Part shown: in pieces, positions 24,433 to 40,664 of the stretch
How positions within the stretch are numbered: the first letter of the stretch is position 1
How the letters are laid out: each line of letters starts with the position of its first letter
Origin: Bacteroidales bacterium
GTDB lineage: Bacteria > Bacteroidota > Bacteroidia > Bacteroidales > UBA3824
DNA length: 64,000 bases
Assembly: GCA_016286055.1 (NCBI GenBank)
Contig: JAEERW010000001.1
Coordinates: 62,001-126,000 of the forward strand
Direction of reading: 5' to 3'
Position numbers and translations under genes: made by a program
Notes under the pieces: generated by a model
The model's database searches: none
What the model saw: the letters and a program-made list of their open reading frames with translations, nothing else
What the model was told of the DNA's origin: nothing

Positions 24433-24541
24433 TGGCACGCCCCGTGCCAAACTTTGTATTGTGTTGTATATTAATTAGTTATAAATTTTTAGCCTTTGTA
24501 AAGGTGTAAAGTTTTTTTACAAGAGTGTAAAAATTTTTGTC
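24433..24541 (-). promoter_or_regulatory. Sigma-54-like promoter with tandem upstream sites (copy A)
   Basis: Minus-strand -24 TGGCAC (24444-24449) and -12 GTGCC (24434-24438) match the sigma-54 layout, about 50 bp before the start codon of the WM-repeat gene. The 15-bp palindrome GTAAAGTTTTTTTAC begins 57 bp upstream (24506-24520), and a weaker second copy starts 21 bp further (24527-24541). The -24/-12 segment is itself a palindrome. Confidence 0.75.
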
Positions 24542-24591
24542 AAAAATGTGTAAAGGGGGAAGAATTTTTATCCAAATGCCGAAAAAATTTT

Positions 24592-24858
24592 TCACCCCCC
24601 GCTACACCCCGAGCACGTGCCGCAGGGTGGTTGGTAGGGACGGAAGTCATCGTCGTTTTTTGGGTCGTCTTTTTTCTTTTTGTCTTTGATTTTTTTGATG
24701 AATTTGGTGCAAGAATCGGTGTGGGTGTGCGGCACGGGAGAGTCTTCTTCTACTGTGTGAAAATCTTCTTCGGAGTCATCTTCCTTTTTTTTGCGGGGGA
24801 TGAGAACCCATATCATGAACACTATTATGACCGAACAAATGATTATAAAGTATTTCAT
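24592..24858 (-). CDS. Small membrane-anchored protein with Cys-rich C-terminus
   Basis: 88 residues from the ATG at 24858. One N-terminal membrane segment (YFIIICSVIIVFMIWVLI) is followed by a highly charged Lys/Asp linker and ends PPCGTCSGCSGG. A terminal C-x2-C-x2-C is unusual in a charged tail and could bind metal or be modified. A second single-span protein with a Cys-containing end (NCGTSCSH) lies at 27113-27457, next to a radical SAM/SPASM enzyme. A role as modified peptide substrate is speculation; a simple membrane accessory protein is equally possible. Confidence 0.65.
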   Translation of the reverse strand: MKYFIIICSVIIVFMIWVLIPRKKKEDDSEEDFHTVEEDSPVPHTHTDSCTKFIKKIKDKKKKDDPKNDDDFRPYQPPCGTCSGCSGG

Positions 24859-24932
24859 AGAGTGCAGTTTTGAGTTTTTGCATTTACAAATATAGGGCAA
24901 AGTGGCGATTTTTTTTCACTTTTTGGGCGGTT

Positions 24933-24966
24933 TTTGCACTCTATATCAAAAAAACTCTTATCTTTG
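24933..24966 (+). promoter_or_regulatory. Putative promoter for the DUF6935-like gene
   Basis: TTTG at 24933-24936 and TATCTTTG at 24959-24966, spacing 22 bp, 41 bp before the start codon at 25008. The -7 box is a good match; spacing is slightly long. Confidence 0.5.
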
Positions 24967-25007
24967 AGAAGATTTTTTTATGTTTAATAATAACATCAAC
25001 CAATATT

Positions 25008-25508
25008 ATGAACAAACAAGAAACTTTTACATTCGACAAAGTGCCACAGAGCGTGGCAGAATTGCAATCGTTGAGCGAATATTCGCTCGATACTCCTTTT
25101 AAAACAGCGGCTTTGGCAATGCTCGTGCTTCTCCGTTGGGAATCCGACCCCGAGGGCGCATACCAATTGATCGACGCATTGCGCGGTCCCGACCCGCTGA
25201 GCAACTATGGCAAATCGTTTATCAAAGAGCGTCTTACTGGCAAAACTTACAAAGTTAAATCGTTTTTTGCCGGCGCAACGGTTGAGAATGGCTATACTCC
25301 CACAATGCCTCTCACCATCACCATCAGCGACAATCCTTACTCGTATCCCGACCCAAATTGGGCAACGCTTTACCTCAAAAGCGCAGGTGCCGACACAGTA
25401 CGCCCGATAAAATTTAGGAAGAAACCCTCGACAGGTCAGTGGTTTTTGAATGATTATCAAAACCTTTCGGACATCAGAGTTCCTGCTGCCGACGACCCGT
25501 GGGCATAG
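25008..25508 (+). CDS. Hypothetical protein, DUF6935-like
   Basis: 166 residues starting at MNKQETFTFD; the longer frame begins inside the promoter. The order of motifs (VPQSVAELQSLSEYSLDTPFKTAA at the start, LIDALRGPDPLSNYGKSFIKERL, then VENGYTPTMPLTITI) recalls DUF6935 proteins found in gut Firmicutes and Bacteroidetes. Soluble, no signal peptide, function unknown. A terminator follows closely. Confidence 0.75.
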   Translation: MNKQETFTFDKVPQSVAELQSLSEYSLDTPFKTAALAMLVLLRWESDPEGAYQLIDALRGPDPLSNYGKSFIKERLTGKTYKVKSFFAGATVENGYTPTMPLTITISDNPYSYPDPNWATLYLKSAGADTVRPIKFRKKPSTGQWFLNDYQNLSDIRVPAADDPWA

Positions 25509-25535
25509 TATAAATGTTGATTTTTCGCAATATAG

Positions 25536-25572
25536 AAAGGAGATAGGATGCACGTTTCTTATCTCCTTTTTT
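25536..25572 (+). terminator. Terminator after the DUF6935-like gene
   Basis: Arms AAAGGAGATA and TATCTCCTTT pair perfectly and are followed by further T residues. Confidence 0.75.
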
Positions 25573-25581
25573 GTGTCTGAT

Positions 25582-25612
25582 TTTGATTTTTATAATTAAT
25601 TGTGTATTTTTG
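25582..25612 (+). promoter_or_regulatory. Promoter for the RelB/RelE-type pair
   Basis: TTTG at 25582-25585 and TATTTTTG at 25605-25612 with 19-bp spacing, 41 bp before the antitoxin start. Confidence 0.6.
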
Positions 25613-25653
25613 TCAGATAGTTTTCGATATGTGTAACTATAAAATTGGCACTT

Positions 25654-25935
25654 ATGTTAAATCCTGTTACTTTGGCTAAGCCCAAAAATCGCAAAAAATA
25701 TTCCGGAAGGGATGTTGCTCCCGACAATATGGAGGTTATTACTCTGAGTTATAATGGAAAAGATAAGATGGCTCGGGCTATTGTTAATTTGATAGAAGAA
25801 TCGGGAGTATTTGATATTCTTCGCGATGACGCCGTGCCTAACGAAACCACTATTGCCGCAATAGAGGAATTAGATAATGGCGGTGGGTTTTCGGCAGCCG
25901 ACGTTGATGATTTACTTAAACAGTTAAAGTCTTGA
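25654..25935 (+). CDS. Antitoxin-like protein (RelB/DinJ type)
   Basis: 93 residues from the ATG at 25654 (MLNPVTLAKPK); a TTG three codons earlier is possible. The N-terminus is basic, then DKMARAIVNLIEESGVFDI and a flexible acidic C-terminus ending FSAADVDDLLKQLKS, as in antitoxins that neutralise RelE/YafQ nucleases. The truncated toxin frame begins 1 bp after the stop. The antitoxin looks intact. Confidence 0.7.
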   Translation: MLNPVTLAKPKNRKKYSGRDVAPDNMEVITLSYNGKDKMARAIVNLIEESGVFDILRDDAVPNETTIAAIEELDNGGGFSAADVDDLLKQLKS

Positions 25936-25936
25936 T

Positions 25937-26071: not shown

Positions 26072-26086
26072 TTAAGTATTAATGCT

Positions 26087-27121
26087 ATGTCTTCTTATTT
26101 TGCTATCCAATGGCATATTACCGACAATTGCGACCTTAGATGCAAGCATTGCTATATCTATGCGAGAAAGAATGTTAAACCTGTGGAAACTCCTTGGGAT
26201 AACCTTTTGTCTACGCTCGATGGTATTGTAGAGCATTGTAGGGTTCTTCATCGCGAGCCTTATATTTATATTACGGGCGGCGACCCGATGCTACATTCAA
26301 GGTTTTGGGATTTTTTGGAGTTGGTGCACGACCTTAAAATCCCTTTCTCCATTATGGGAAATCCTTATCACCTTAATAAAGAGGTGTGCCAGATGCTGAG
26401 TTCGCTTGGCTGTCAAAAGTTTCAACTTTCGCTCGATGGTCTTGCTCCCACTCACGACAAATTGCGCAGGCCGGGTTCGTTTAAGGCTACGATAAATGCT
26501 ATTCCTATTATCCGCGAGGCTGGTATCAAGTGCGTGGTAATGTCTACTGTGAGTGCTAAAAATATGAATGATATTCCACAGTTGATAGATGTTGTGGTTG
26601 GAAATCAGGTAGATGTGTATGCGTTTGCACGATATTGCCCTACCGAAGGTATAAAGAGTGCTTGGCATATTCCGCCGCAAGAATATCGTAAGTTTTTGGA
26701 TGCCTGTTGGCACAAGTTTGAGGAGCATAGCAATAGCAACACCATTTTTAACCTCAAAGACCATCTTTGGACGCTTTATCTTTATGAAAAAAAACTTTGG
26801 AAGATTCCCCAAAAATCCGACCCGTACGGCATTTACGATGGATGTCATTGTGCCCAAGACCATCTAACTATCACAGCCGATGGCAACATTATGGCTTGCC
26901 GACGGTTTGATAGCGTGGTTGGCAATGTGAAAACGGGTATTTACGATGCTTATAAGAGTAGCGAAATGGATAAATACCGCCATTATGGAAAGTTTGAAAA
27001 ATGCAAGGATTGTGTGCTGCTGCGGTTTTGCAGAGGTTGTCCCGCTGTGGCATACGGTTATGACCGAAATTTTTATGCACGCGACCCTCAATGTTGGCGG
27101 ACGGTGAAATCATCAGTGTGA
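26087..27121 (+). CDS. Radical SAM/SPASM domain enzyme
   Basis: 344 residues. The [4Fe-4S] radical SAM motif C15-x3-C19-x2-C22 (NCDLRCKHCY) is followed by ITGGDPML (SAM binding) and a C-terminal SPASM domain with several cysteines (GNIMACRRF, KCKDCVLLRFCRGCP, QCWR). SPASM enzymes modify peptides or proteins, forming thioethers, C-C bonds or epimers. From memory the N-terminal QWHITDNCDLRCKHCYIY resembles the family called ACGX-system rSAM, which is associated with small Cys/Gly repeat peptides. The Cys-ending proteins at 24592 and 27113 are therefore candidate partners. Its stop overlaps the 3' end of the opposite-strand gene at 27113 by 9 bp. Confidence 0.92.
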   Translation: MSSYFAIQWHITDNCDLRCKHCYIYARKNVKPVETPWDNLLSTLDGIVEHCRVLHREPYIYITGGDPMLHSRFWDFLELVHDLKIPFSIMGNPYHLNKEVCQMLSSLGCQKFQLSLDGLAPTHDKLRRPGSFKATINAIPIIREAGIKCVVMSTVSAKNMNDIPQLIDVVVGNQVDVYAFARYCPTEGIKSAWHIPPQEYRKFLDACWHKFEEHSNSNTIFNLKDHLWTLYLYEKKLWKIPQKSDPYGIYDGCHCAQDHLTITADGNIMACRRFDSVVGNVKTGIYDAYKSSEMDKYRHYGKFEKCKDCVLLRFCRGCPAVAYGYDRNFYARDPQCWRTVKSSV

Positions 27122-27457
27122 GCAACTTGTGCCGCAATTTGTGGGTATTCCTGATTCATTTGATGTATCGTAACCTGCTCCATCGATCCAAAATTCAAGT
27201 CTTTCGCCCAATGTGGGACGGAAGGGTTTGCGTTTTGGCTTAGATTCCTCGGGTTCGGGAATTTTAGGTTGATTGATAAAATCGTTGGCAGAATGGTGCA
27301 GCCCCACGTCTTTGTTTTCGATGTGGTAGGTGGTTCCTTTGGGTGGCGGCGTGGTTTTAGATTCAGCGGATGAGCCATTTTTGCCTGTGAATGACTCGTA
27401 CGCCGCAATACCCATTATTGCTATTATCAATATTAATATTATCAAAAAGAATATCAT
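27113..27457 (-). CDS. Small single-span membrane protein, Cys-containing C-terminus
   Basis: 114 residues: an N-terminal membrane segment (MIFFLIILILIIAIMGIAAY), a Pro/Lys/Glu-rich linker, then RPTLGERLEFWIDGAGY and a C-terminal NCGTSCSH. It starts 4 bp after the NSS transporter stop, so it is surely co-transcribed with that gene and could be its accessory small subunit, like MetS of MetPS systems. Its tail-to-tail overlap with the radical SAM gene and the Cys-ending tail also allow it to be a modification target. I cannot decide between these. Confidence 0.7.
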   Translation of the reverse strand: MIFFLIILILIIAIMGIAAYESFTGKNGSSAESKTTPPPKGTTYHIENKDVGLHHSANDFINQPKIPEPEESKPKRKPFRPTLGERLEFWIDGAGYDTSNESGIPTNCGTSCSH

Positions 27458-27461
27458 AGCG

Positions 27462-28850
27462 TTACATTATTCCTGTTGATTTCAACAAAAGTACAAAAAG
27501 CAAAAACGGCACAACGTACTTAATCATAATTATATAGAGTTTCCGTCGCATAAATATTTCGCCGTTTAGGGTAAGTTCGTTTACCACAGTGTCGGGCGTG
27601 GCAATCCAGCCTATAAGTATGCAGGTGCCAATTTCTAAAAGTGGCATCATCACGTTGTTGCTAACATAGTCCATAAGGTCGAGCACCTGAGCCTTTACGC
27701 CGTTGGGCAGGTTGATTTCAAAATAGAAAACGTTGTAGCCAAGGCAAACCACTGTGGCAAAGCCTATTAATGCCAAAAACGACAACCACGAGCAGCGACG
27801 TCGCGAAACGGGATATTTTTCTAAAATGCCCGACACAAAGCCTTCCATCATTCCCACCGAACTTGTAAGCGCAGCAAAAAGTACCATTACAAAAAACATC
27901 GCGCCGATAATGTTTCCCGCCGTGCCGAGTGCTGCAAACACCTTTGGCACATTGATAAACATCAGCCCCGGTCCCGACGATTCTAACCCTTGCGCACCGG
28001 CAAACACATATACCGCCGGAATTACCATAAAGCCAGCCAAAAACGCCGCTAACGTATCGAAAAACTCTATGCGGTTGATACTCTGCACAAGGTTGTCGCT
28101 TTTTTTAACATACGACCCATACGACACCATCATTCCCGCAGCAAGGCTGAGACTGAAAAACAACTGCCCCATAGCGTCGAGAAATGTCTCTAAGAGTTTC
28201 TCCATAGTCAGGTTGGAAAAGTCGGGGATAACAAACACCTTTAAGCCGTCTAATCCTGTGCGTGTGGTGCCGTCGCTGTCGGTGTGGCTGAGCGTGAGCG
28301 AATATATTGCTATGCCGATTATCATCAAAAAGAGCAACGGCATCACTGTTTTAGAAAACCTCTCGATACCTTTGTTGACACCTCGGCTAACTATTGCCGC
28401 CGTAATGCCCAAAAACACAAACGTATACACCAATGGTTCGTATTGAGCGGAGATAAATCCGCCAAAAAATCCATCTTGGGCAGCATCTGCGCCACCGCCT
28501 GTAACAAACTCTACGGCATATTTCATTACCCATCCGCCCACCACACAGTAGTAGGAGAGGAGTATAAACGGAATAAGGCACGCTACTGTACCTAAATGCT
28601 TAAATTTTGTGTTTAAATCGCCGTATGCAAATAGCGCACTTTTTTGGGTGTTGCGTCCGATGGCAATTTCGGTGGTGAGGAGTGTAAAACCGAATGTGGC
28701 AGCCAAAATCAGGTATACGAGCAGAAACAGACCTCCGCCGTCTTTGGCAGCGAGATATGGAAAACGCCAAATGTTGCCCAATCCCACTGCGCTGCCTGCC
28801 GCCGTAAGTATAAAGCCCAACTGTCCGCTGAATGAGTTGCGTGATGTCAT
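27462..28850 (-). CDS. Sodium-dependent transporter, NSS (SNF) family
   Basis: 462 residues with about 11-12 membrane segments. The first helix AAGSAVGLGNIWRFPYLAAKDGGG carries the sodium- and substrate-binding turn conserved in LeuT and related neurotransmitter:sodium symporters. FFSLSLAAGMMVSYGSY corresponds to helix 6-7. It imports an amino acid or related amine with sodium; substrate cannot be inferred. A small membrane protein gene follows by 4 bp. Confidence 0.95.
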   Translation of the reverse strand: MTSRNSFSGQLGFILTAAGSAVGLGNIWRFPYLAAKDGGGLFLLVYLILAATFGFTLLTTEIAIGRNTQKSALFAYGDLNTKFKHLGTVACLIPFILLSYYCVVGGWVMKYAVEFVTGGGADAAQDGFFGGFISAQYEPLVYTFVFLGITAAIVSRGVNKGIERFSKTVMPLLFLMIIGIAIYSLTLSHTDSDGTTRTGLDGLKVFVIPDFSNLTMEKLLETFLDAMGQLFFSLSLAAGMMVSYGSYVKKSDNLVQSINRIEFFDTLAAFLAGFMVIPAVYVFAGAQGLESSGPGLMFINVPKVFAALGTAGNIIGAMFFVMVLFAALTSSVGMMEGFVSGILEKYPVSRRRCSWLSFLALIGFATVVCLGYNVFYFEINLPNGVKAQVLDLMDYVSNNVMMPLLEIGTCILIGWIATPDTVVNELTLNGEIFMRRKLYIIMIKYVVPFLLFVLLLKSTGIM

Positions 28851-28885
28851 TTCAGTATCTTTTGTTTGGGCAAATATAGGGAAAT

Positions 28886-31261
28886 TTATTCAGTTTTCAA
28901 TGTCTTAACAGGATTTTCGTTGGCGGCGCGGAAACTTGCGGCTGTTACCACCAAGGCTGTGATGCCCACGGCTATTAGTATGCCAATGGCAAATATCCAC
29001 GGCGCGATGGGGTAGTGGTAGGCAAATCCCGAAAAGTAGGTGTTGACTGCAAAGAATGACAGCGGTATTGCTATGGCGCTGCATATTGCCGCCAATATCA
29101 AGTATTTGCGGTTAAACATCGAAAGTATTTCTGCAATGGTGGCTCCGTTTACCTTGCGAATGCCAATTTCTTTGCGGCGGCTTTCGGTTTCAAAGAGCAC
29201 AATGCCGAATATTCCCATAACAGATATGATGATGGCTATTATGGTAAATGTGGAAATCATCGACGACACATCGTTCTCTGTCTTGTAGTTTTCGCTGAGT
29301 TCCTGCTCGAAGGTTTGAATTTCGGGCTGAATGACAGTGAAGTTTGGGTCGATTTCGGCTAATGTGGTGTAGATGTAGTCTCTAACGCTTTTTACGTTGG
29401 CACCGTCGGCGTAGCGGATGTAGAGCCGGTTCATAATGTTTTCTTTGTAAACAAAAATACCACAGGACGAAATGTTGTATCGCAGAGGCCTGATATGGAA
29501 GTCGGAACAGAATCCTACGATTTTGAAGTTTTCTGATGGAAAAACGGTTTCAGTGGTGATATTTGTACTGCGACGTGCTGTCTCGTTGAAAATCGCTATC
29601 GTGAGCGTGTCGTTGATATCAGATTCCATAAAATTGCGCCCCTCGGTTATCTTTATTCCCATAAAGTCGAAGAAATTTTTAGATACGGTCATTCCTTCGA
29701 AAGCAAACAACTCATCTGGATTGTCGGGAGATTGAATGCTTGAATGATTGCCTTGTGCGTGCACAATGTGGTCTCTTGTCCAAGTGATGTCGGTAATTTG
29801 CGGATTTTCGAGGAGTTTGGTGCGGACGGTCTCGTGTTTTTGAGCGATGTTTCCTGGTGTCCACAGTGTTAGAATATTGTCCTTATTGAATCCGATGTCT
29901 TTTGACAATAGGTAACTGTTGTTTTTTTGGATAAACAACGAGCAAATAATCAAGGCGATAGATGCCGCTACTTGGAATCCAACTAAAAACAAACGCAGCG
30001 GATTTCGGCTGTTTTCGGTCATCTTGCCTTTGAGGGCGAGCGCGGGTGGCAGCGAAGTGATATGCAATGCTGGGTAGAGGCTTGTTAACGCTGCTGCCGC
30101 AATGGATACCAATATGCTGATAGTGAGTATTTTGTAATTTGAGAACACTACCTTGTCCATATCCACCACACCGTCTACAAACCAAGGTATTACGGTGCGA
30201 GTTGCCACCCAAGCCAACACTACCGCCAAAAGGGTGAATATTATTGATTCGCCAACCACACTAAGCACAAGCCGTGAACGATCGCAGCCGAGTATCTTGT
30301 TGATATTGATATCTTTGATACGTTTGGGCGCACGTGCCATAAAGAAGTTGAAATAGTTGATGAACGCGATAGCGAGAACAAGTATGGCGAGAAGCACGTA
30401 AGTGTATATCAACTTGGCGTCGCTGGGTGTGTGGAATCCTGCCATTTGAGTATGTAGGTGGATGTCTTTGATTGGAAGGTAATCCACATTAAATCCTCCG
30501 ACTAAGTTGTCGAGAAGTTCGGCGGGCATATTTGGCTCTTTTTCGAACATCGACCTCATAAGTTTTTTGAAAGTCTCCCGGTGTTCGGTATTGAATTTTT
30601 CGGGAGTAATTCCGTCTTGGAGTTTTATGTAGTAGGTGTACGACCATTGACCCGAATTGTTGATATTATCATCAGCAATATTGAAGAATCCATCCAATTG
30701 TCCAAACTCGGTGTTGTTTTCCATATCCTCGTAGATAGCCACAATTTCGAGTGTGTAGTCGGGGGTGTTGAGGTAAGGAATTATTATGTCGCCTACCTTC
30801 AATTCGTATTTTTGCGCCAACGAACGGGTGATTATTAAATCTTTGCCGGTTTTGAAACGAGAGAGGTCGCCTTCCAATATGTTGAGTCCGAACACTTCTG
30901 GCAGACCGCTGGTGCACCCACGAATGGTAAAATTGATTTTGCTGTGATGTCCGCCGTTTTCGATATATCCGTCCCAAATGCCCCCACACAGGCATCCGTA
31001 TTTTTCTATTTGCGGAATTTGAGTGCCGATGGATTCGCCCAACGGTCGCGATATGGCGTTTGCCCATTCACCGGACCACACTTCTGGGCTTTGGAAGGTT
31101 ATCTGGCAGATTCTGTCGTGGTCTTTGATGCTTTGGTTGAATGTGAACGAGTAGTCTGCCATAGACATCAATGTGTAGAATGTGGCTATGGCTATGGCTA
31201 TTCCCACAATGTTGAGCAGCGAAGGAAGCGTAGTTAACGATCTGAGTTTAAAAAGTTTCAT
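28886..31261 (-). CDS. MacB/FtsX-type ABC permease, copy 2
   Basis: 791 residues. One N-terminal membrane span, a large periplasmic MacB-PCD-like domain (about 45-280), three spans, a short core, a second periplasmic domain and three C-terminal spans with the FtsX-type ETESRRKEIGIRKVNGAT motif. It lacks an ATPase domain and depends on the ABC ATPase encoded at 33817. It is a close tandem duplicate of the next gene upstream: the termini are nearly identical and the periplasmic domain has diverged. Such permeases export peptides, lipoproteins or drugs, or act by mechanotransmission without transport. Confidence 0.93.
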   Translation of the reverse strand: MKLFKLRSLTTLPSLLNIVGIAIAIATFYTLMSMADYSFTFNQSIKDHDRICQITFQSPEVWSGEWANAISRPLGESIGTQIPQIEKYGCLCGGIWDGYIENGGHHSKINFTIRGCTSGLPEVFGLNILEGDLSRFKTGKDLIITRSLAQKYELKVGDIIIPYLNTPDYTLEIVAIYEDMENNTEFGQLDGFFNIADDNINNSGQWSYTYYIKLQDGITPEKFNTEHRETFKKLMRSMFEKEPNMPAELLDNLVGGFNVDYLPIKDIHLHTQMAGFHTPSDAKLIYTYVLLAILVLAIAFINYFNFFMARAPKRIKDININKILGCDRSRLVLSVVGESIIFTLLAVVLAWVATRTVIPWFVDGVVDMDKVVFSNYKILTISILVSIAAAALTSLYPALHITSLPPALALKGKMTENSRNPLRLFLVGFQVAASIALIICSLFIQKNNSYLLSKDIGFNKDNILTLWTPGNIAQKHETVRTKLLENPQITDITWTRDHIVHAQGNHSSIQSPDNPDELFAFEGMTVSKNFFDFMGIKITEGRNFMESDINDTLTIAIFNETARRSTNITTETVFPSENFKIVGFCSDFHIRPLRYNISSCGIFVYKENIMNRLYIRYADGANVKSVRDYIYTTLAEIDPNFTVIQPEIQTFEQELSENYKTENDVSSMISTFTIIAIIISVMGIFGIVLFETESRRKEIGIRKVNGATIAEILSMFNRKYLILAAICSAIAIPLSFFAVNTYFSGFAYHYPIAPWIFAIGILIAVGITALVVTAASFRAANENPVKTLKTE

Positions 31262-31340: not shown

Positions 31341-33734
31341 TTATTCAGATTTGAGAGTGTTCACGGGGTTTTCGCTTGCGGCACGGAAACTTGCGGCTGT
31401 TACCACCAAGGCTGTGATGCCCACGGCTATGATAATGCCAATGGCAAATATCCACGGCGCGATGGGGTAGTGGTAGGCAAATCCTTCAAAATATTTGCTT
31501 ACGGCAAAGAGCGATACTGGAATTGCTATTGCGCTGCATATTGCCGCTAATATCAAGTACTTGCGGTTGAACATCGAAAGTATTTCTACAATAGTGGCAC
31601 CGTTTACCTTTCGTATGCCGATCTCCTTGCGGCGGCTCTCGGTTTCAAAGAGAACTATGCCGAATATTCCCATTACAGATATGATGATGGCTATTACTGT
31701 GAAAATTGTAATCATCGACGACACAGTGTTTTCGTTCTGGTAGTTTTCGCTAATCTGCTGGTCGAAAGTTTTGAGTTCGGGCTGGATAACAGCGAAATTT
31801 GGGTCAATATCGGTTAATGTGTTTAGAATGTATTCTCTTACGCTTTTTACGTCGGCACCTTCGGCGTAGCGGATGTAGAGTTGACTCATAGAGCCATCTT
31901 TATTGAGGCATAGGGCGCAGGATGTGATGTCGTATAGCAGAGGCTTGAAGTTGAAGTCGTTGCAAAATCCGACGATGTTGATGTTGCCTTCATCAGATTC
32001 TCCACCGATTTTAGTTTCAGTGGTAAGATTCAAACGTTTGCGTGCGGTTTCGTTGAAAATCATCGGATAGTTGATGGTGTCTTGGATGTCGGATTCTGAA
32101 AAGTTGCGGCCGTTGGTTATCTTTATTCCCATACAGTCGGCGAAGTTTTTAGACACATACAATACATCGAAATAACAACTTTCTTCTGGGTTTTCTTTGG
32201 AAGGTACGCTCCAAAATGACCCTTGTGAGCGAACTATTGCATCGCCTGCCCAAGTCATATCTGAGATGTTTGGGTTTTCGAGAAGTCTGTTGCGTACTGT
32301 CTCGTGTTTTTGAACTATACCTGGCGGACACCACATTGTGAGAAGGTTGTCCTTGCTGTAGCCAATGTCGGTTGATATTATGTAATTGTTGTTTTTGTGA
32401 ATAAACAACGAGCATATAATCAGGGCGATAGAAGCCGCTATTTGAAATCCTACTAAAATCAAACGCAGCGGGTTTCGGTTGCTTTCGGTCATCTTACCTT
32501 TGAGAGCGAGAGCAGGAGGCAACGATGTGATATGCAGGGCTGGATAGAGACTTGTCAAAACTGCCGCTACAATTGATGCCAATACGCTGATAGCGAGTAT
32601 TTTGTAGTTTGATAACACTGTTTTTTCCATATCCACTATGTCGCCTACAAACCAAGTCATTACGGTGTGCGTAATAACCCAAGCCAACACTACCGACATA
32701 AGTGTGAATATTATTGATTCGCCCACTAAATTAAGCACTAGACGTGACCGGTTGCAGCCAAGTATCTTGTTGATATTTATATCTTTGATACGTTTGGGCG
32801 CACGAGCCATAAAGAAGTTGAAATAGTTGATGAACGCGATGGCGAGCACAAGTATGGATAGAAGCACAAAAGTGTAAATCAAATTAGCATCCTGATGCCT
32901 GTGGTAGCCTGCCATCTGCGAGTGCAGGTGGAGGTCTTTGATTGGAAGAAATTCCATATTGAATTGTTCGATTGCGTTTTCGAGATACTCTTTGGGTACC
33001 TGTGTGTCGTCTTTGTATATCAACCTGATTATATCCTTGACAGATTCTTTGCTTTCGGAGAGAAATTCTTCTGGGTCAACTCCGTTTTGGAGTTTTATGT
33101 AATAGGTATAGTCCCAATGGTTTCTGGAATTGATATTTTCCTCGCCAAGGTTGGTGAATCCGTCAAATTGCCCGAACTCGGTGTTGTTTTCAAAATCCTC
33201 ATATACAGCCACAATTTCGAGAGTACGGCTGAGGTTGTTGAGGTCGGGATACAGAATGTCGCCAATTTTTAGACTGTATTTCTCAGCCATAGAGCGAGTT
33301 ATAATCAAATCATTGGCGGTTTTGAAACGCGACAGGTCGCCTTCCACAATATTGAATCCGAACACCTCGGTTAGTCCGTTGTCGCAAGCCACGGCGGTGA
33401 AATGGATTTTGCTGTGGTGTCCGCCGTTTTCGATGTAACTGTCCCAAATGCCCCAACGACGCAGGCATCCGTATTTTTCAATTTGCGGAAGCCCATCGCC
33501 TAAGGCTATGCCGAAAGGTCGCGGAAAGTTGTTTGACCATTCGCCTCCCGAAACGTCTATGCTATGGTAGATTATCTGGCAGATGCGTTCGTTGTCTTTG
33601 ACGCTGCGGTTAAACGTCAACGAGTAGTCTGCAACCGCCATCAGCGTGTAGAATGTGGCAATTGCAATGGCTATTCCCGTGATATTCAACAGCGAGGGAA
33701 GCGTGACCAGCGAACGGAGTCGAAAGAATTTCAT
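31341..33734 (-). CDS. MacB/FtsX-type ABC permease, copy 1
   Basis: 797 residues with the same order of parts as the gene at 28886: N-terminal span, periplasmic domain, three spans, second periplasmic domain, and C-terminal spans with ETESRRKEIGIRKVNGAT. The first 40 and last 130 residues are nearly the same as copy 2; the region 50-250 differs more. Copy 1 is nearer the ATPase gene and was probably the source, or both arose from a common duplication. Likely works as a dimer, possibly a heterodimer with copy 2. Confidence 0.93.
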   Translation of the reverse strand: MKFFRLRSLVTLPSLLNITGIAIAIATFYTLMAVADYSLTFNRSVKDNERICQIIYHSIDVSGGEWSNNFPRPFGIALGDGLPQIEKYGCLRRWGIWDSYIENGGHHSKIHFTAVACDNGLTEVFGFNIVEGDLSRFKTANDLIITRSMAEKYSLKIGDILYPDLNNLSRTLEIVAVYEDFENNTEFGQFDGFTNLGEENINSRNHWDYTYYIKLQNGVDPEEFLSESKESVKDIIRLIYKDDTQVPKEYLENAIEQFNMEFLPIKDLHLHSQMAGYHRHQDANLIYTFVLLSILVLAIAFINYFNFFMARAPKRIKDININKILGCNRSRLVLNLVGESIIFTLMSVVLAWVITHTVMTWFVGDIVDMEKTVLSNYKILAISVLASIVAAVLTSLYPALHITSLPPALALKGKMTESNRNPLRLILVGFQIAASIALIICSLFIHKNNNYIISTDIGYSKDNLLTMWCPPGIVQKHETVRNRLLENPNISDMTWAGDAIVRSQGSFWSVPSKENPEESCYFDVLYVSKNFADCMGIKITNGRNFSESDIQDTINYPMIFNETARKRLNLTTETKIGGESDEGNINIVGFCNDFNFKPLLYDITSCALCLNKDGSMSQLYIRYAEGADVKSVREYILNTLTDIDPNFAVIQPELKTFDQQISENYQNENTVSSMITIFTVIAIIISVMGIFGIVLFETESRRKEIGIRKVNGATIVEILSMFNRKYLILAAICSAIAIPVSLFAVSKYFEGFAYHYPIAPWIFAIGIIIAVGITALVVTAASFRAASENPVNTLKSE

Positions 33735-33816: not shown

Positions 33817-34497
33817 TTAAAGTTCGTTCTTTACATCAGAAACAATTTTGCCGTCGAAGAGGTTGATGATACGTTGTGCTTTGGCGGCATCTTTTTGCGA
33901 GTGGGTAACCATAACGATGGTAGAACCTTCGCGGTTGAGTTCGGTGAGGAGTTCCATCACTTCGCGGCCGTTTTTAGAATCGAGGTTACCAGTAGGTTCG
34001 TCGGCGAGAATCAACTTGGGGTTCATTACCACTGCACGGGCAATTGCCACACGCTGCTGCTGACCGCCGGAGAGTTGCTGCGGAAAATGTTTTGCCCTGT
34101 GGGCGATGTTCATACGTTTGAGAATTTCGTCAACACGTTTTTTGCGCTCAGATGAACTGATTTTGAGGTAGAGCAATGGAAGTTCCACATTTTCATATAC
34201 ATTGAGTTCGTCGATAAGGTTGAAACTCTGGAACACGAAACCGATGTTGCCCTTGCGGAATTGTGTGCGGTCTTTTTCTTTGAGGTTACCCACTTCCTGA
34301 CCAATAAGTTCGTAACTGCCTGATGTGGGGTTGTCTAAAAGACCGAGGATATTCATAAGTGTAGATTTGCCGCATCCCGAAGGCCCCATAATGGCTACAA
34401 ATTCGCCGTCTTTGATTTCAAACGAAACACCGTCTAATGCGAGTGTCTGTACTTCTTCGGTAGAGAAGATTTTGCTGAGGTTTGTTACTTTAAGCAT
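33817..34497 (-). CDS. ABC transporter ATP-binding protein (MacB/LolD type)
   Basis: 226 residues, complete ABC ATPase: Walker A GPSGCGKS (38-45), signature LSGGQQQR, Walker B LILADEPTGNLD, H-loop in MVTHSQKDA. This is the subgroup that powers FtsX-fold permeases. It is the first gene of a unit with the two duplicate permeases and has its own sigma-54-like promoter (copy B). It is the only ATPase in the locus and probably also serves the permease at 35506. Confidence 0.95.
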   Translation of the reverse strand: MLKVTNLSKIFSTEEVQTLALDGVSFEIKDGEFVAIMGPSGCGKSTLMNILGLLDNPTSGSYELIGQEVGNLKEKDRTQFRKGNIGFVFQSFNLIDELNVYENVELPLLYLKISSSERKKRVDEILKRMNIAHRAKHFPQQLSGGQQQRVAIARAVVMNPKLILADEPTGNLDSKNGREVMELLTELNREGSTIVMVTHSQKDAAKAQRIINLFDGKIVSDVKNEL

Positions 34498-34548
34498 AGT
34501 ATTTTGTGTTTTATTGTTTATACTAAATTTGTTTTTACTTTATATGTA

Positions 34549-34654
34549 GCATTACTTGTGCCAAAGTGTTTAAGTGGTTGATATAATGCGTTTTGTGTTT
34601 TTGTAAGAGTGTAAAAGTGTAAAGTTTTTTTACAGTGATGTAAGGATTTTTTAC
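34549..34654 (-). promoter_or_regulatory. Sigma-54-like promoter with tandem upstream sites (copy B)
   Basis: Minus-strand -24 TGGCAC (34558-34563), 5-bp spacer and -12 ATGC (34549-34552), about 52 bp before the ATPase start. Upstream lies GTAAAGTTTTTTTAC (34619-34633, 56 bp from the -24 box) and a second palindrome-like copy starting at 34640, 21 bp from the first. Layout matches copies A and C. Confidence 0.8.
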
Positions 34655-35505: not shown

Positions 35506-37848
35506 CTATTCTTTTTTGAGACCTTCTATGGGGTTGGAATAGACGGCTTTGGCGGATTGGAAGGTGACTATTATTACTGTTACCAATGTTAGCAATAATA
35601 GTATCAGCAATGATGCCCACCACGGCAGCGAGACTTTTTCTACAAAGTTTTCTTGCCACAGTCCTGTGATATAGTACGTTATGGGCAGACTCAGCACAAA
35701 TCCTATCGCTATGATTATGATGTACTTGATGTTGATGCGTTTGAAAATATCCTCGGTGGTGGCGCCAAAGGTGCGGCGTACAGATATTTCGTTGCGTTGA
35801 AACTCAGTGTCGAATGTTACCATTCCTACAACTCCGATTAACGAAATAAGCACCGCCAATATCGCCATAAACACCGTTGTCGCCGAAGTGTTGATCTCTT
35901 TTTTGTAAAGATTGTCGAACACTTTGTCGTAGAACATTATATCTAATGGCATTTCGGGTGAGATTTCGTTTACCACGTTGGTTATGTGCTTGATAGCGTC
36001 TTTTACGTTGCTGCCTTTGGCTATTTTTACGTAGCAATAACTTAGGTCGTCGGCACGGTCGAGTACGAATGCAATCGGAAGGTCGTTTGTTCTGTACGAT
36101 GTTATCTTGATGTTGCCGCCCACAATGCCTTTTACCGCGCCTAACAATGTGTCGCCTAAATATTCGATGCCTCTGCCAAGGTTGTCGGTAATGATGCAGT
36201 CGTTTTTCCAGTTGTTTTCAACATCAATTTCGCTGTTGGGGCGATTTTGGAATCCGTCTCCTGCCGTAAGCGGTATTCCAAACACATCTAACATCTCTCT
36301 CGTGCAATATATGCTGTAATAATGGAGGGTGTCGCCGTCTTTGAGGAAGCGCATTGTGTTGTACGAATCGCTTCCTCCAAAGATTGTTTGCGAGCACGAC
36401 ACGTTCTCTATCGCGCTGTTGGTTTTTAGTTTTTCATCTACCAAGTCGAATTTTTTTCCGAAATTCTCATTTATATGGAAAATGGCTATCTGATTGTCTT
36501 TGAGGATATAGTTGGCGTTCTCCATATATTTGAGTTGCATCCAAATAGATACCGCTATCGAAATAAAACATATTGCAGCCAAATATTGAAACACCATAAG
36601 TGTGTTTCGGAGTTTACGTCCCGATTGCGAGCGTCCGAATGAGCCTTTTAACACCAATGCCGGATTTGCCGATGTGAGTTTATAAATTGGGTAAATATTT
36701 GATATAGCGTTGATTATCAATGCTATCAATCCTACCAAAAGGCATACTCCAAAATTGCCCGAAACTGACAAGTCGTCGGAAACAATAAACGATGTGAGCC
36801 AAGTGTTTTTCAAAATTGTTACCATCAACAACGCTGTAAGCCAAGAGATTAAGCAGATGATGATGTTTTCGGCAAAGAGTTGCATACTCAGCAGGCTGAC
36901 GTCGCCGCCGAGAACTTTTTGTGTGTTGATGCTCTTGATTCGCATTGGAATGAGCGCAATGTTGAAGTTGGTCTGGTTTATTGCCGAAATCAACAGCACT
37001 ATTAATGCTATAATCGACAGCATTGTGGTAGTCCGGGAACTTCCGCTTTTTAAAAATCCTGCATTGTTTTCGTTGGCGTAATACGAGTCGTGTATAGGTT
37101 CAAGTCTAAAAGGACCGAATGTTTTTATGGATTCTACGCTTTGGTTGATAAGTTGCTCAACATATTCGCGGTCGTTGGGCGATGAGAGCATTGCCCATCC
37201 GAGAAAGTTTCGTCCGAAGTTTTCGTGTTTGGCAGTTTCGTCGAGCGAGTAGTAAATAGCGTTTTGTGTCTGTGTGTTGGCGGGGAAATCTTTGTAAACG
37301 CCTGTTATCGGGTTTGTGGGTTCGCCGCACCAAATGCCGTCGATTGTTATGCTTTTGCCTAAAACGTCGGTAGTGCCGAACATTCTCATAGCGATTGATT
37401 CGCTGATAAGAAGGTGTCCTTTTTCGTTGAGACTTTTTGGATCGCCGCAGATGAGGTCAAAGTCAAACATTTTTACATATCCTGAATCAATGCCTACAAC
37501 AAACTCGTTAAAGCCGTGTTTTTCGCCCTTATTGTCCTCTGTTTCAACATAGTATTTGTCAACAAAGTCTAATTTTGCAGAATAGGCTTCGATTTTTGGC
37601 GTAAGGTTTCCGATAACTTCGATGTCCTGACGTTGCAAAATTAAGTCCCACGGTTGTTCTGTGCCTTGCTTGATGACGAATATCCTGTCGGAGTTTTTGT
37701 GATAACTGTCGAAATTATTTTCGTAAATAATTTGCATACCAACAAACATCAGGGCGGTGAGCGCGGCGGTGATGCCGGCATAGTTCATTATCCACGCCGC
37801 CTTGAAGTTGCGAATGGTGCTGATTAGGTTGCGTAATACGATTTTCAT
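35506..37848 (-). CDS. MacB/FtsX-type ABC permease, third paralogue
   Basis: 780 residues with the same overall plan as the other two permeases but clearly more distant: N-terminal span, periplasmic domain (about 45-280), three spans, second periplasmic domain and C-terminal spans with the motif FDTEFQRNEISVRRTFGAT. It has no ATPase domain. It is the third gene of the TolC-HlyD-permease unit and presumably pairs with the ATPase at 33817. Confidence 0.92.
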   Translation of the reverse strand: MKIVLRNLISTIRNFKAAWIMNYAGITAALTALMFVGMQIIYENNFDSYHKNSDRIFVIKQGTEQPWDLILQRQDIEVIGNLTPKIEAYSAKLDFVDKYYVETEDNKGEKHGFNEFVVGIDSGYVKMFDFDLICGDPKSLNEKGHLLISESIAMRMFGTTDVLGKSITIDGIWCGEPTNPITGVYKDFPANTQTQNAIYYSLDETAKHENFGRNFLGWAMLSSPNDREYVEQLINQSVESIKTFGPFRLEPIHDSYYANENNAGFLKSGSSRTTTMLSIIALIVLLISAINQTNFNIALIPMRIKSINTQKVLGGDVSLLSMQLFAENIIICLISWLTALLMVTILKNTWLTSFIVSDDLSVSGNFGVCLLVGLIALIINAISNIYPIYKLTSANPALVLKGSFGRSQSGRKLRNTLMVFQYLAAICFISIAVSIWMQLKYMENANYILKDNQIAIFHINENFGKKFDLVDEKLKTNSAIENVSCSQTIFGGSDSYNTMRFLKDGDTLHYYSIYCTREMLDVFGIPLTAGDGFQNRPNSEIDVENNWKNDCIITDNLGRGIEYLGDTLLGAVKGIVGGNIKITSYRTNDLPIAFVLDRADDLSYCYVKIAKGSNVKDAIKHITNVVNEISPEMPLDIMFYDKVFDNLYKKEINTSATTVFMAILAVLISLIGVVGMVTFDTEFQRNEISVRRTFGATTEDIFKRINIKYIIIIAIGFVLSLPITYYITGLWQENFVEKVSLPWWASLLILLLLTLVTVIIVTFQSAKAVYSNPIEGLKKE

Positions 37849-37879
37849 ATTAGTAATGTTTTAGTTGAATATTTATCTT

Positions 37880-39139
37880 TTAGTTGAATTCTACTTTTTC
37901 GCTGTCGCCAAAGTTTTCGTAGCCCGAGATAATTACTTTTTCGCCGGGTTCGAGACCTTCAAGAATTTCGTAGAATTTCGGGTTTTGACGGCCTATGCGG
38001 ATGGAGCGTTTTACGGCGTATTTGCCGCCTTCGTCTACTACGTAAATCCACTGTCCGCCTGTGTGCTGGTAGAATGTGCCTTTGGGAATGATGATTGCGT
38101 TGGTGGGACTTCCAAGTTGGATGTTGAGATAGTAGGTCTGTCCTGTGCGGATGTTGTCGGGCTGCTCGCCGGTGAATTTGAGGTCGGCGCGGAACTTGCC
38201 GTTGCGCACTTCGGGATATATTTTGCGAATTTGTGCCGAATAGGTGTCGTTGTTTTTCTCAAAAGTGGCGTCAAGTCCTGAGGTTACGCGGTCGATGTAA
38301 TGCTCGTCGATGAGGACTTCGATTTTGTAACTTTCGAGGTTGTTGATTTGCGCTATTTTGTCGCCGACGCGCAAATACTGACCTTTAACTGCGTCTAACA
38401 GACCGAGTTCGCCGTCGATAGGGGCTTTGATATTGAGGTTTTCTTTGCGTCGGGTAATCATTTCCATATTTTTGCGCATACTTGCGAGACTTTCTTGAAG
38501 GTTTTTGATTTGCACGCTGCGGTAAAGACTGTCTTGTTTAGCGCGGTTCTGATTGAGTTCCAACTGCTGTTTGGCAAGTGTGTAGTCTTCTTCCGATTGG
38601 ATAAACTCCTCTTTGGAGCAAAGGTTTTCGGCGTAGAGTTTCTTTTTCTGCTCGTAGTCGCGACGTGCTCGGTTGAGGTTTCGGGTGTATGTCAGATGGT
38701 TTTGTTCAAGGTCTAACTTTTGCTTCTCCATATCAATCATTGTGTTGCGCAGATGGTTCTCCTTTTCGGCAAGGTCGGCTTCGGAGTGAAGTATTTCCAT
38801 CTCCAACTGCTGGTTCGACAGGCGTACAATCACGTCGCCGGCTTTGAGCGTTGAGCCTTCCTCGTTGACAATCTCCTCAACGATTCCCCCTTCCAACGGA
38901 CTGATTTGCACAGTGTTCATTGGCAACACTTGACCGCTTTGACGGATATAGTCGTTAAACTCGCTCTCTTTAACCTCGGCTATGTTGAAGTTTTCGCTCT
39001 TAACCGAAACCGAGTTGCTGTCGGTGGTGATTAGAAGGTACACGAGCAAAAGCGCGACCGCTCCGCCTATCCAATACCAAATGTATTTTTTTTGGAAGTA
39101 TTTTTTTATGCCTTTTTTTTGTTCGATTACAATGTCCAT
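37880..39139 (-). CDS. Membrane fusion protein, HlyD/MacA family
   Basis: 419 residues. An N-terminal membrane anchor (about 22-40), a lipoyl-like half (SPLEGGIVEEIVNEEGSTLKAGDVIVRL), a long alpha-helical hairpin (about 115-230) rich in Glu/Lys/Gln, the second lipoyl half (IKAPIDGELG), and beta-barrel and membrane-proximal domains. It links an inner-membrane permease to TolC across the periplasm. Located between the TolC and permease genes with 31- and 54-bp gaps, so operonic. Confidence 0.94.
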   Translation of the reverse strand: MDIVIEQKKGIKKYFQKKYIWYWIGGAVALLLVYLLITTDSNSVSVKSENFNIAEVKESEFNDYIRQSGQVLPMNTVQISPLEGGIVEEIVNEEGSTLKAGDVIVRLSNQQLEMEILHSEADLAEKENHLRNTMIDMEKQKLDLEQNHLTYTRNLNRARRDYEQKKKLYAENLCSKEEFIQSEEDYTLAKQQLELNQNRAKQDSLYRSVQIKNLQESLASMRKNMEMITRRKENLNIKAPIDGELGLLDAVKGQYLRVGDKIAQINNLESYKIEVLIDEHYIDRVTSGLDATFEKNNDTYSAQIRKIYPEVRNGKFRADLKFTGEQPDNIRTGQTYYLNIQLGSPTNAIIIPKGTFYQHTGGQWIYVVDEGGKYAVKRSIRIGRQNPKFYEILEGLEPGEKVIISGYENFGDSEKVEFN

Positions 39140-39193
39140 ATTAGTTATAGTTTATTAGTTTTCAATTATGAATTACGAATTATGAATTATGAA
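39140..39193. repeat. A/T-rich spacer with ATGAATT repeats
   Basis: Two to three near-identical ATGAATT/ACGAATT steps between the TolC and HlyD genes, similar to the 31262 spacer. Confidence 0.5.
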
Positions 39194-40525
39194 TTAAAAT
39201 TGTTCTAAGTAAGATTTGCCACGATAGTAGTCTACAACGGCGTTTTTAATAATGTATGAATAGAGTGCGTTGTAGTATTGGGCTTGTGCTTCGAGGTAGT
39301 TGTTGTATGTCTCATTGAATTCGATGTAGGATATTGTTCCTAATTCAAATTTCTTTTGAGCCGCCTCTAAGTATCTTTTGTTGAGTTCTGCTGATTTTTG
39401 CGCAGCGTTGAGCGATTTTTCGGCAGAAACAGCGTCGTCGTAGGCAGAGTAGACTGCGTTTTCGATTTCGCGACGTTTCTCTTCAAATTCGTAAGAGGCT
39501 ATTTTGTATTCGGATTTTTTGCGAGAGTGATTTGAAAATTTGTTGAATCTGTTGTAAAGAGGAATGCTGAGTCCTACTCCGATGTATTTGTGAGCGTTGT
39601 TTTTGAATTGGTCGTTAAACGGTGCCGCCATACCTTTGTTGTCGGGATAAACTGTGTGATAGGTGTTCCAACCTGCTTCTAGGCCAATATATGGCGCGTA
39701 CTGCCATCGTGAGGTTTTAAATTCTAAATGTTTGATTTCCATAGCGTTTTTTGCAGCTACTGTTGCCGAGTTTGTTTCAATTGCTGTTTGAGCTGTCTGT
39801 TCTGCATCTGTCAATTGCACCTCGTTTGCTGTCTTTATCACGGTGTCGACTGTTAGCGATTCGGCTGCCGGATAGAACATTACGCTTTTGAGGTCCATCA
39901 ACGCTTTGTTTTTCATTGCGTTGTAATCTGCCACTTTAAATTCAGCCTGAGCCTCAAAAACCTCTTTGTCGAGCACGTCTTGTTGGCTGTTGCTGCCGAG
40001 TTCGTATCCGCGACGTGCCTTTTGGAGCAGTCTTTCGGCGTTTTGCAACTGTCGTTCTGCCAATTCGCTCATTTTTGAGTAGTATGTGTAGTTGTAATAG
40101 TGCTGAATGGTGCTCAGACAGATTTCTTCTTGCTTTGCCTTGCGGCTCTCTTTGCCGCTCAGGAGTGATATTTTTGAGATTTTTATCTGGTTTACAGCCT
40201 CGAAACCATTAAACAACGTGATTTCGCCCTTTATGCCGTATGAGTCTTGTATTGTTTTTAATGTGGTGTACATATTGGTTTCTGGGTCGGGAATACGTCC
40301 CGAAGATGCTGTTACGCTTGCCGATGCATTAACCGACGGTGAAAGTGCGTTGAGCCAGGCGTCGCGGCGGTCGATAGAGTTTTCTGATAGTCGCTCGTCT
40401 TCCGCAGCAATCTGAGTTGAGTGTTCTACGGCGAATTGCATACAATCGTGCAGCCCCATTGTTGTCTGCGCCATTGCCTTCGCTGTTAGAAGTATTATTA
40501 CAGATGTTATTTTTAGTGCTTTCAT
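39194..40525 (-). CDS. TolC family outer membrane efflux protein
   Basis: 443 residues with a signal peptide (MKALKITSVIILLTAKAMAQ) and two repeats of the outer-membrane efflux domain. Long helices such as ERQLQNAERLLQKARRGYELG and ELNKRYLEAAQKKFELGTISYIEF are the duplicated TolC coiled coils. It forms a trimeric channel for the exporter. First gene of its unit, with a sigma-54-like promoter (copy C). Confidence 0.94.
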   Translation of the reverse strand: MKALKITSVIILLTAKAMAQTTMGLHDCMQFAVEHSTQIAAEDERLSENSIDRRDAWLNALSPSVNASASVTASSGRIPDPETNMYTTLKTIQDSYGIKGEITLFNGFEAVNQIKISKISLLSGKESRKAKQEEICLSTIQHYYNYTYYSKMSELAERQLQNAERLLQKARRGYELGSNSQQDVLDKEVFEAQAEFKVADYNAMKNKALMDLKSVMFYPAAESLTVDTVIKTANEVQLTDAEQTAQTAIETNSATVAAKNAMEIKHLEFKTSRWQYAPYIGLEAGWNTYHTVYPDNKGMAAPFNDQFKNNAHKYIGVGLSIPLYNRFNKFSNHSRKKSEYKIASYEFEEKRREIENAVYSAYDDAVSAEKSLNAAQKSAELNKRYLEAAQKKFELGTISYIEFNETYNNYLEAQAQYYNALYSYIIKNAVVDYYRGKSYLEQF

Positions 40526-40554
40526 TTTATTCTTTTTAACATTACACTAAAAAA

Positions 40555-40664
40555 CTAACACCGATTGTGCCAAAGGGGGTTGTTGCTTGATTGTTAGATT
40601 ATTATGATAATTGATAAACTGTAAAAGTGTAAAATTTTTTTACAGTGGTGTAAAGGAATTTTAC
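40555..40664 (-). promoter_or_regulatory. Sigma-54-like promoter with tandem upstream sites (copy C)
   Basis: Minus-strand -24 TGGCAC (40567-40572), 5-bp spacer and a weaker -12 GTGTT. The upstream palindrome GTAAAATTTTTTTAC (40629-40643) starts 57 bp from the -24 box and a second, GTAAAGGAATTTTAC (40650-40664), starts 21 bp further. The two sites are nearly the same as those of copy B across 44 bp. Confidence 0.7.

What the first reader, a model, noticed from the sequence alone, without database searches (positions are those of the whole stretch)
24433..40664. A three-site sigma-54-like regulon joins a WM-repeat secreted protein to a split MacB/TolC-type exporter
Read directly: three minus-strand units (starts 24383, 34497, 40525) have a TGGCAC -24 element and a -12 element (good in A and B, weaker in C). 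The palindrome GTAAA-N5-TTTAC starts 57, 56 and 57 bp upstream of the -24 box. In each case a second palindrome starts exactly 21 bp after the first (24506/24527, 34619/34640, 40629/40650), which is two helical turns. Sigma-54 activators commonly bind such tandem sites (established). I infer one regulator, not in this window, that controls two exporter units and a small secreted repeat protein, which may be its cargo or signal.
Basis: partly seen in the sequence, partly recalled or inferred. Interest (0 to 1): 0.85.

Follow-up and report, generated by a model that had tools for sequence, protein, structure and literature searches.

The report
Sigma-54 exporter regulon with repeat protein
In gut Bacteroidales, a sigma-54 switch protein encoded just outside this stretch of DNA probably turns on, together, a membrane-spanning pump and a small secreted protein made of repeated Trp-Met motifs; other bacterial families keep the same pairing under a different switch, so the two probably work together, perhaps in defending the cell envelope.

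Summary
Sites A, B and C are 3 of 10 genome-wide copies of a tandem GTAAA-N5-TTTAC operator (21-bp phase); all 10 have a sigma-54 -24/-12 element 55-56 bp downstream; reversed-pattern control 0. The likely regulator is a REC-AAA-HTH_8 response regulator with a kinase lacking a sensor domain, 26 kb before the window. In two other Bacteroidales genomes, orthologues sit directly behind the same operator, one in an operon with TolC and HlyD.

The WM-repeat protein belongs to an unnamed secreted, acidic family (15 of 295 order genomes). In four other families, 11 such genes have sigma-54 elements and a different operator (TGTNCG-N4-CGNACA, complete in 7), related to that of another regulator clade (RR3). 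Across 10 genomes, this operator plus a -24 box gives 21 sites: 9 WM genes, 10 exporter genes, 2 others; control 0. In a fifth family (two genomes), 4 of 6 WM genes carry the only exact copies of an ECF-type promoter. So WM plus exporter co-regulation survived operator replacement. I think this is an envelope-defence system; whether WM proteins are cargo or peptide-binding effectors is open.

The parts
24506..24541 (-). Tandem operator A (two GTAAA-N5-TTTAC palindromes, 21-bp phase; the outer one has two mismatches)
24433..24449 (-). Sigma-54-type promoter A, TGGCACGGGGCGTGCCA
24033..24383 (-). WM-repeat protein, 116 aa, apparent N-terminal Sec signal peptide (by eye), five ExWM repeats 17-18 aa apart, acidic
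   Evidence: no named family above cut-off
34619..34654 (-). Tandem operator B (outer palindrome with one mismatch)
34547..34563 (-). Sigma-54-type promoter B, TGGCACAAGTAATGCTA
33817..34497 (-). ABC ATPase, LolD/MacB-type (nearest NCBIfam DarD, below cut-off)
31341..33734 (-). MacB/FtsX duplicated permease (operon B)
28886..31261 (-). MacB/FtsX duplicated permease (operon B)
27462..28850 (-). Sodium:neurotransmitter-symporter-family protein (probable operon B, 35 bp after the permease)
27113..27457 (-). Small N-terminal-TM protein with Cys tail ...PTNCGTSCSH, probable last gene of operon B
40629..40664 (-). Tandem operator C (both palindromes perfect)
40556..40572 (-). Sigma-54-type promoter C, TGGCACAATCGGTGTTA
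39194..40525 (-). TolC-family outer membrane channel (operon C)
37880..39139 (-). HlyD-family periplasmic adaptor (operon C; nearest NCBIfam DarC, below cut-off)
35506..37848 (-). MacB/FtsX duplicated permease (operon C)

Best explanation
A two-component system made of a kinase without an apparent periplasmic sensor domain and an NtrC-type response regulator (G000:C24:34374-35732, 26 kb before the window) binds tandem GTAAA-N5-TTTAC sites about 80-120 bp upstream of ten sigma-54 promoters and switches on a split MacB/HlyD/TolC-type exporter, extra MacB-type permeases, a DUF2807 protein, an outer-membrane protein, a few enzymes and the WM-repeat protein. Shown by sequence: the ten-site architecture, the candidate regulator, and the recurrence of exporter plus WM under another regulator clade with another operator. 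Inferred: the kinase reads the state of the membrane or of the exporter permease, as in Bce-type modules; the regulon answers envelope or antimicrobial-peptide stress; the WM protein is a Sec-exported, probably flexible, acidic chain of repeated ExWM motifs that works outside the cytoplasm with the exporter, most likely by binding harmful peptides or envelope partners.
For: Ten of ten genome sites have correctly spaced -24/-12 elements; control 0. Regulator: one sigma-54; of three strong activators only the C24 protein has REC and HTH_8, C13 lacking REC and C22 lacking HTH_8; orthologues behind the same operator in L115 and L123, one clade with it at 100/100; in G007 the regulator gene lies beside operator-driven TolC-like and permease-like genes. 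Rewiring: RR3 operator sites, 21 in 8 of 10 genomes, control 0; first genes 9 WM, 10 exporter, 2 other; of the 12 sites not seen before that search, 4 WM, 6 exporter, 2 other. The gene facing RR3 is an exporter part in 8 of 10 and DUF2807-like in 2 of 10. ECF-type promoter: 4 exact sites in two genomes, all before WM genes, control 0. Eight kinases examined: one TM, or two TMs with a short loop. WM proteins: pI 4.1-4.6, net -6 to -51; the AlphaFold2 model shows no globular fold.
Against: No expression or binding data. The regulator in this genome lacks the site in its own promoter. 3 of 18 genus genomes show no site. 11 of 24 WM genes examined have no sigma-54 element, including the second WM gene of this genome. 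WM genes are not beside exporter genes in the other families. In the two ECF-type genomes the exact ECF pattern drives no exporter and misses 2 of 6 WM genes. RR3 intergenic operators are exact in only 4 of 10, one mismatch in 4, two or three in 2. The antimicrobial-peptide role rests on analogy only. GNAT, carboxylesterase and outer-membrane targets are not explained.
Confidence: 0.6

Rival explanations
1. The WM-repeat protein is the exporter's cargo: Sec carries it to the periplasm, it may be cut between repeats into ~18-residue peptides, and the MacB/HlyD/TolC machine sends it out as a signal or antagonistic peptide. (Shares the regulatory part with the best explanation; the odds are not exclusive.)
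For: WM and exporter genes are 19 of 21 RR3-site first genes. STII reaches the periplasm by Sec and leaves by MacAB-TolC (PMC5985334, passages). The own-type operator drives three operons with a GG-leader-like small peptide and a TIGR04148 radical SAM maturase above cut-off; two of them (L128, L186) also encode an ADOP-like permease.
Against: In the two ECF-type genomes the exact ECF sites are all WM genes, with no exporter among them. WM genes do not sit beside exporter genes in other families. Secretion and processing are untested.
Confidence: 0.27
2. The regulon is a general envelope-stress regulon in which exporter and WM protein act separately; WM is a surface or periplasmic structural protein and does not meet the exporter. 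(Also shares the regulatory part.)
For: Own-genome targets are mixed: DUF2807, outer-membrane protein, GNAT, carboxylesterase. WM genes stand alone in other families and can be under an ECF-type promoter.
Against: The RR3 sites are almost only exporter and WM genes (19 of 21), which is narrow for a general stress regulon.
Confidence: 0.25
3. A different activator (the REC-less protein at C13 beside an lptE-like gene) binds these sites.
For: It is the only other HTH_8 activator found in the genome.
Against: Orthologues of the C24 regulator, not of C13, sit behind the site in L115 and L123. RR1 paralogues sit beside own-type sites (by eye), and the only exact own-type site with a -24/-12 element in 12 other genomes is 71 bp from an RR1 gene. 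The C13 protein is a far outgroup in the regulator tree.
Confidence: 0.06
4. The motif alignment is a chance or composition effect in AT-rich DNA.
For: Single palindromes are only about two-fold above expectation in the window; the inner half-site with a -24/-12 element alone gives 15 hits against 6 reversed.
Against: Reversed-pattern controls are 0; spacing is fixed and downstream gene classes recur.
Confidence: 0.01

Closest known systems
Sigma-54 regulon of FtsX-like ABC permeases (COG0577) in Bacteroidia (PMC12316311, 2025; passages seen)
   Same: Predicts sigma-54 promoters before FtsX-like ABC permeases in Bacteroidia.
   Different: The passages seen name no operator, activator, TolC/HlyD partner or WM-repeat protein for them; 'palindrom' and 'duf' occur 0 times in its main text.
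BceRS-BceAB flux-sensing resistance modules (PMC5985334, passages seen)
   Same: Two-component system whose kinase does not sense the drug itself, tied to a permease related to MacB.
   Different: Here the regulator is NtrC-type with sigma-54 and the exporter is a tripartite HlyD/TolC type; flux sensing is not shown.
PrsK-PrsR / RpoN control of PEP-CTERM proteins (PMC9850573, listing and start of abstract seen)
   Same: NtrC-type response regulator and sigma-54 control small secreted proteins (details recalled). TIGR02915 (PrsR) is the best NCBIfam match of the regulator.
   Different: Score 427 is below the cut-off 503; the window WM protein ends in ...ESWMF without a PEP-CTERM tail (by eye).
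Darobactin exporter DarBCD
   Same: Nearest NCBIfam models for the ATPase; among the best for adaptor and permeases.
   Different: All below cut-off: DarD 284 of 375, DarC 220 of 450, DarB 45-52 of 700.
Vibrio cholerae SipA, a periplasmic antimicrobial-peptide-binding stress protein (PMC6370654, title and start of abstract seen)
   Same: Precedent for a stress-induced periplasmic protein that binds antimicrobial peptides.
   Different: Sequence relation not tested; WM proteins are repeat chains under sigma-54 or ECF-type promoters.

Membership tests
Sigma-54-dependent promoters | -24 TGG.A. and -12 TG(C/T) elements with fixed spacing | tested here: met
   10 of 10 sites fit TGGYAY-N6-TG; -12 reads TGC in 4, TGT in 5, TGA in 1 of 10
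Sigma-54-dependent promoters | Genome encodes sigma-54 and a cognate enhancer-binding protein | tested here: met
   one PF04552 gene; REC-AAA-HTH_8 regulator; cognate status inferred from L115/L123
Sigma-54-dependent promoters | Loss of transcription without RpoN | not testable with these tools
   needs mutants
NtrC-type response regulators | Response_reg + Sigma54_activat + HTH_8 | tested here: met
   protein 8
MacB-type tripartite exporters | FtsX/MacB_PCD permease, ABC ATPase, HlyD adaptor, TolC channel | tested here: met
   the ATPase is a separate gene and the permeases are duplicated (ADOP-like, below cut-off), unlike E. coli MacB (recalled)
Darobactin exporter DarBCD | NCBIfam equivalog cut-offs | tested here: not met
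Bce-type modules | Kinase without extracytoplasmic sensor domain | tested here: met
   (hydropathy only, eight kinases, two of them partial)
Bce-type modules | OmpR-type regulator (recalled) | tested here: not met
   the regulator is NtrC-type
PEP-CTERM / PrsKR system | TIGR02915 score above cut-off | tested here: not met
   427 against 503
Any named family, for the WM protein | Pfam or NCBIfam match above cut-off | tested here: not met
   window protein: none at E 0.001 in Pfam or NCBIfam. For all 24 members only Pfam was run; the full table is shown for the first, a tally for the rest, best E 0.0067

The most novel reading that the evidence does not exclude
WM-repeat proteins are an unrecognised family of flexible, acidic, multivalent secreted proteins that form one functional unit with a type VII tripartite exporter across Bacteroidales: a bind-and-export defence in which the repeats capture cationic peptides in the periplasm and pass them, or themselves, to the exporter, while the sensor-less kinase reads exporter activity. 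The pairing has been rewired between at least two sigma-54 regulator/operator pairs; in a further family WM genes alone are under an ECF-type promoter.
Probability: 0.25. Interest if true: 0.85.

Novelty: new variant of a known kind. Interest (0 to 1): 0.72.

Why it matters
To my knowledge (recalled) sigma-54 in Bacteroidales has few assigned activators and operators. Here an operator, its likely regulator and a compact regulon can be read from sequence and tested. The same pairing, WM-repeat protein plus MacB-type exporter, under two different operators points to a functional partnership and gives an unnamed secreted family a testable role. Three operons with the own-type operator encode a TIGR04148 radical SAM peptide maturase, so the same regulator class may also bear on peptide antibiotics.

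Tried and rejected
Rod-like alpha-helix for the WM repeats (18 residues = 5 turns): not supported; the AlphaFold2 model (24-row alignment) has mean pLDDT 70, pTM 0.19, helices of four or more residues only at 5-18 (signal-peptide region) and 61-64, and three-residue turns at WM motifs.

WM as a phylum-wide family: the alignment search found it only in the window's own genome among 395 phylum genomes at E 1e-5. Its first look may miss short repeats: four WM genes missed by the protein search were found through the operator.

WM genes physically linked to exporters: rejected outside the own genus (20 loci). In one own-genus locus (L234, G007) a weak TolC match (27 bits) lies 1.3 kb from a WM gene without a sigma-54 element. 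WM next to radical SAM genes: 1 of the 20 loci (L228), plus the window's own locus 1.7 kb away, with different radical SAM families; left as a lead.

Single palindromes as the signal: rejected, only mildly enriched. Automatic tandem-palindrome detection in front of 37 regulators was clear for part of them and gave no clear result for the own-genus regulators; operator types RR1-RR4 were partly read by eye. Circularity: TGTNCG-N4-CGNACA was read off WM promoters, so its count is post hoc; of the 21 sites, 5 WM promoters and 4 RR3 intergenic sites had been seen before, and the ten genomes were chosen for having WM genes, so RR3 in 10 of 10 is not an independent sample. The ECF pattern was read off those four promoters. 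Regulators of the ECF-type genomes were read only in part: 7 of 12 hits in G249 and 1 of 3 in G039.

Literature searches. Papers opened: PMC9723704 (only a reference-list passage matched), PMC12316311 and PMC5985334 (passages); other listed papers were not opened.
Full report
What is there. Site A precedes the 116-aa WM protein; site B precedes an ABC ATPase, two MacB/FtsX permeases, a sodium symporter-family protein and a small Cys-tailed protein; site C precedes TolC, HlyD and a third permease.

A ten-site regulon. The paired palindrome (up to 2 mismatches) occurs at ten places in the genome; the reversed pattern at none. In promoter orientation all ten read TTACA-N4-TGTAAA-N5-TTTACA, and 55-56 bp after the 36-mer TGGYAY-N6-TG. 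The -12 reads TGC in 4, TGT in 5 and TGA in 1. A looser search with only the inner half-site and the -24/-12 element returns all ten plus five others, against six reversed hits, so the half-site alone is not specific. Further targets: a DUF2807 protein (C5), two MacB/FtsX permeases (C24:51456), a MacB/FtsX permease followed by a DUF418 protein (C33), an OMP_b-brl_3 protein (C28), a GNAT protein (C36), a carboxylesterase (C23) and a secreted-looking partial protein at a contig end (C27).

The same architecture elsewhere. In the genus, 15 of 18 genomes have it, three have none, and all reversed controls are 0. Over the loci from both searches, 137 distinct sites were read: the gap to TGG is 51-57, 131 of them 53-56, though 40-70 was allowed (some genomes may appear in both collections, and only identical flanks were merged). 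First genes by phmmer against my reference set: TolC 41, permease 28, ATPase 9, HlyD 2, DUF2807 10, outer-membrane protein 7, carboxylesterase 5, GNAT 4, precursor-like peptide 3, regulator 2, WM 1, unassigned 25. Four of the 116 named stretches have odd labels (one Tissierella; three from one 'Alphaproteobacteria' genome, including L186) and may be chance or mislabelled.

The regulator. The genome has one sigma-54 and three proteins scoring strongly for the sigma-54 activator domain (four weaker hits look like other AAA+ proteins). The C24:34374-35732 protein has receiver, activator and HTH_8 domains; the C13 protein lacks the receiver and the C22 protein lacks HTH_8. A kinase gene follows the C24 regulator. 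In L115 an orthologue sits directly behind the site in a row regulator-kinase-TolC-HlyD, and in L123 another orthologue sits behind the site; with the own-genus regulators they form a clade at 100/100. In the window's own genome the regulator has no such site in front of it. The eight kinases examined have one N-terminal membrane segment, or two with a short loop, and no sensor domain by hydropathy.

WM family and rewiring. The WM protein has relatives in 15 of 295 genomes of the order (8 of 183 genera, own included). The 24 distinct proteins share E-x2-L-x-[LI]-E-x-W-M (E at -2 in 103 of 108 motifs; 71 of 84 spacings 16-19), pI 4.1-4.6 and negative charge. Of their 24 promoters, 13 have a sigma-54 element within 90 bp of the start codon and 11 do not. 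Of the 13, two in the own genus have the own operator. The other eleven, in four families, do not; seven have TGTNCG-N4-CGNACA in full and four have related, incomplete sequences (by eye).

Operator and regulator change together. Regulator paralogues in those families often face an exporter gene, with a palindrome pair of their own type between the two (by eye; in part). The clade RR3 (100/99) is present in all ten genomes whose WM genes have the second operator type. The best TGTNCG-N4-CGNACA match in front of RR3 is exact in 4, one off in 4, and two or three off in the 2 genomes of family f56. RR3 faces HlyD (6, one of them by N-terminal likeness), ATPase (2) or a DUF2807-like gene (2). A genome-wide search with this operator plus TGGCAY found 21 sites in 8 of 10 genomes, reversed control 0. 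First genes: 9 WM, 10 exporter parts, 2 small membrane proteins. Nine of the 21 had been seen before the search (5 WM promoters, 4 RR3 intergenic sites); the 12 new ones are 4 WM, 6 exporter and 2 small membrane proteins. The gap is 86-89 for WM and 86-88 for HlyD, but 76-78 for ATPase, permease and TolC genes: about one helical turn. Conversely, the exact own-type palindrome with a sigma-54 element occurs once in 12 other-family genomes, beside an RR1 gene.

A third wiring. In two genomes of another family (G039, G249) the six WM genes lack sigma-54 elements at promoter distance, and four of the six have GTAAC-N16-CGTC, the look of an ECF-sigma promoter (recalled). TGTAAC-N16-CGTCNTATA occurs four times in the two genomes, all four before WM genes, control 0. 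No RR3 protein was recognised among the regulators read there (7 of 12 hits in G249, 1 of 3 in G039).

How it probably works. Sequence supports an NtrC-type regulator on tandem sites at about -80 to -120 activating sigma-54 polymerase. That the signal is envelope or peptide stress is inference from the exporter type, from Bce-type kinases and from PhoPQ control of MacAB (PMC5985334, passages). The WM protein enters the periplasm by an apparent signal peptide. The structure model shows no globular fold, with slightly better confidence at the repeats (low confidence), which fits a flexible multivalent binder but does not prove disorder. Cargo and binding effector remain open; I put binding effector slightly ahead because WM genes can stand under an ECF-type promoter that no exporter gene shares in exact form.

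What is known. A 2025 sigma-54 survey reports FtsX-like permeases behind predicted sigma-54 promoters in Bacteroidia (PMC12316311, passages). I found nothing on the operator, the regulator or WM proteins in the searches, which cover only the open library and of which most listed papers were not opened.

Noticed in passing
window 24592-27457: A radical SAM/SPASM gene (26087-27121 +, TIGR04340 ACGX system, 486 against cut-off 400) lies between the WM gene and exporter operon B, with two small membrane-anchored proteins with Cys tails nearby (24592-24858...PPCGTCSGCSGG; 27113-27457...PTNCGTSCSH; neither in a named family above cut-off). The second is probably in the sigma-54 operon, so it could be a modified peptide exported by it.
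   Followed up: partly
L128, L173, L186: The own-type operator precedes operons with a small GG-leader-like peptide (TIGR04149 below cut-off in the two tested), a TIGR04148 radical SAM maturase above cut-off in all three, a TIGR04150 pseudo-radical SAM protein (above cut-off in L173 and L186, just below in L128), an ADOP-like permease (L128, L186) and a peptidase-type exporter (L186). L128 has three palindromes in 21-bp phase.
   Followed up: partly
L201, L202, L214, L215 (G249, G039): WM genes with a GTAAC-N16-CGTC promoter; the longer form TGTAAC-N16-CGTCNTATA is found nowhere else in the two genomes; the sigma factor was not identified.
   Followed up: partly
L228:7418-9346 (G024): A TIGR04133 radical SAM gene (479 against cut-off 425), preceded by a TIGR04134-like lipoprotein gene (31 against 40), ends 6 bp from a WM gene on the other strand.
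   Followed up: no
L308, L314: The two RR3 sites that are neither WM nor exporter precede a small membrane protein (61 and 74 aa) with a basic RRGRKESRMKEYRRGY stretch, a candidate third partner.
   Followed up: no
ten promoters, e.g. window 40618-40664: A further TTTAC half-site starts 8-9 bp after that of the inner palindrome in 8 of the ten promoters.
   Followed up: partly
G000:C24:226654-227100: A second WM gene of the same genome, with relatives in G015 and G007 by signal-peptide likeness (by eye), has no sigma-54 element.
   Followed up: no
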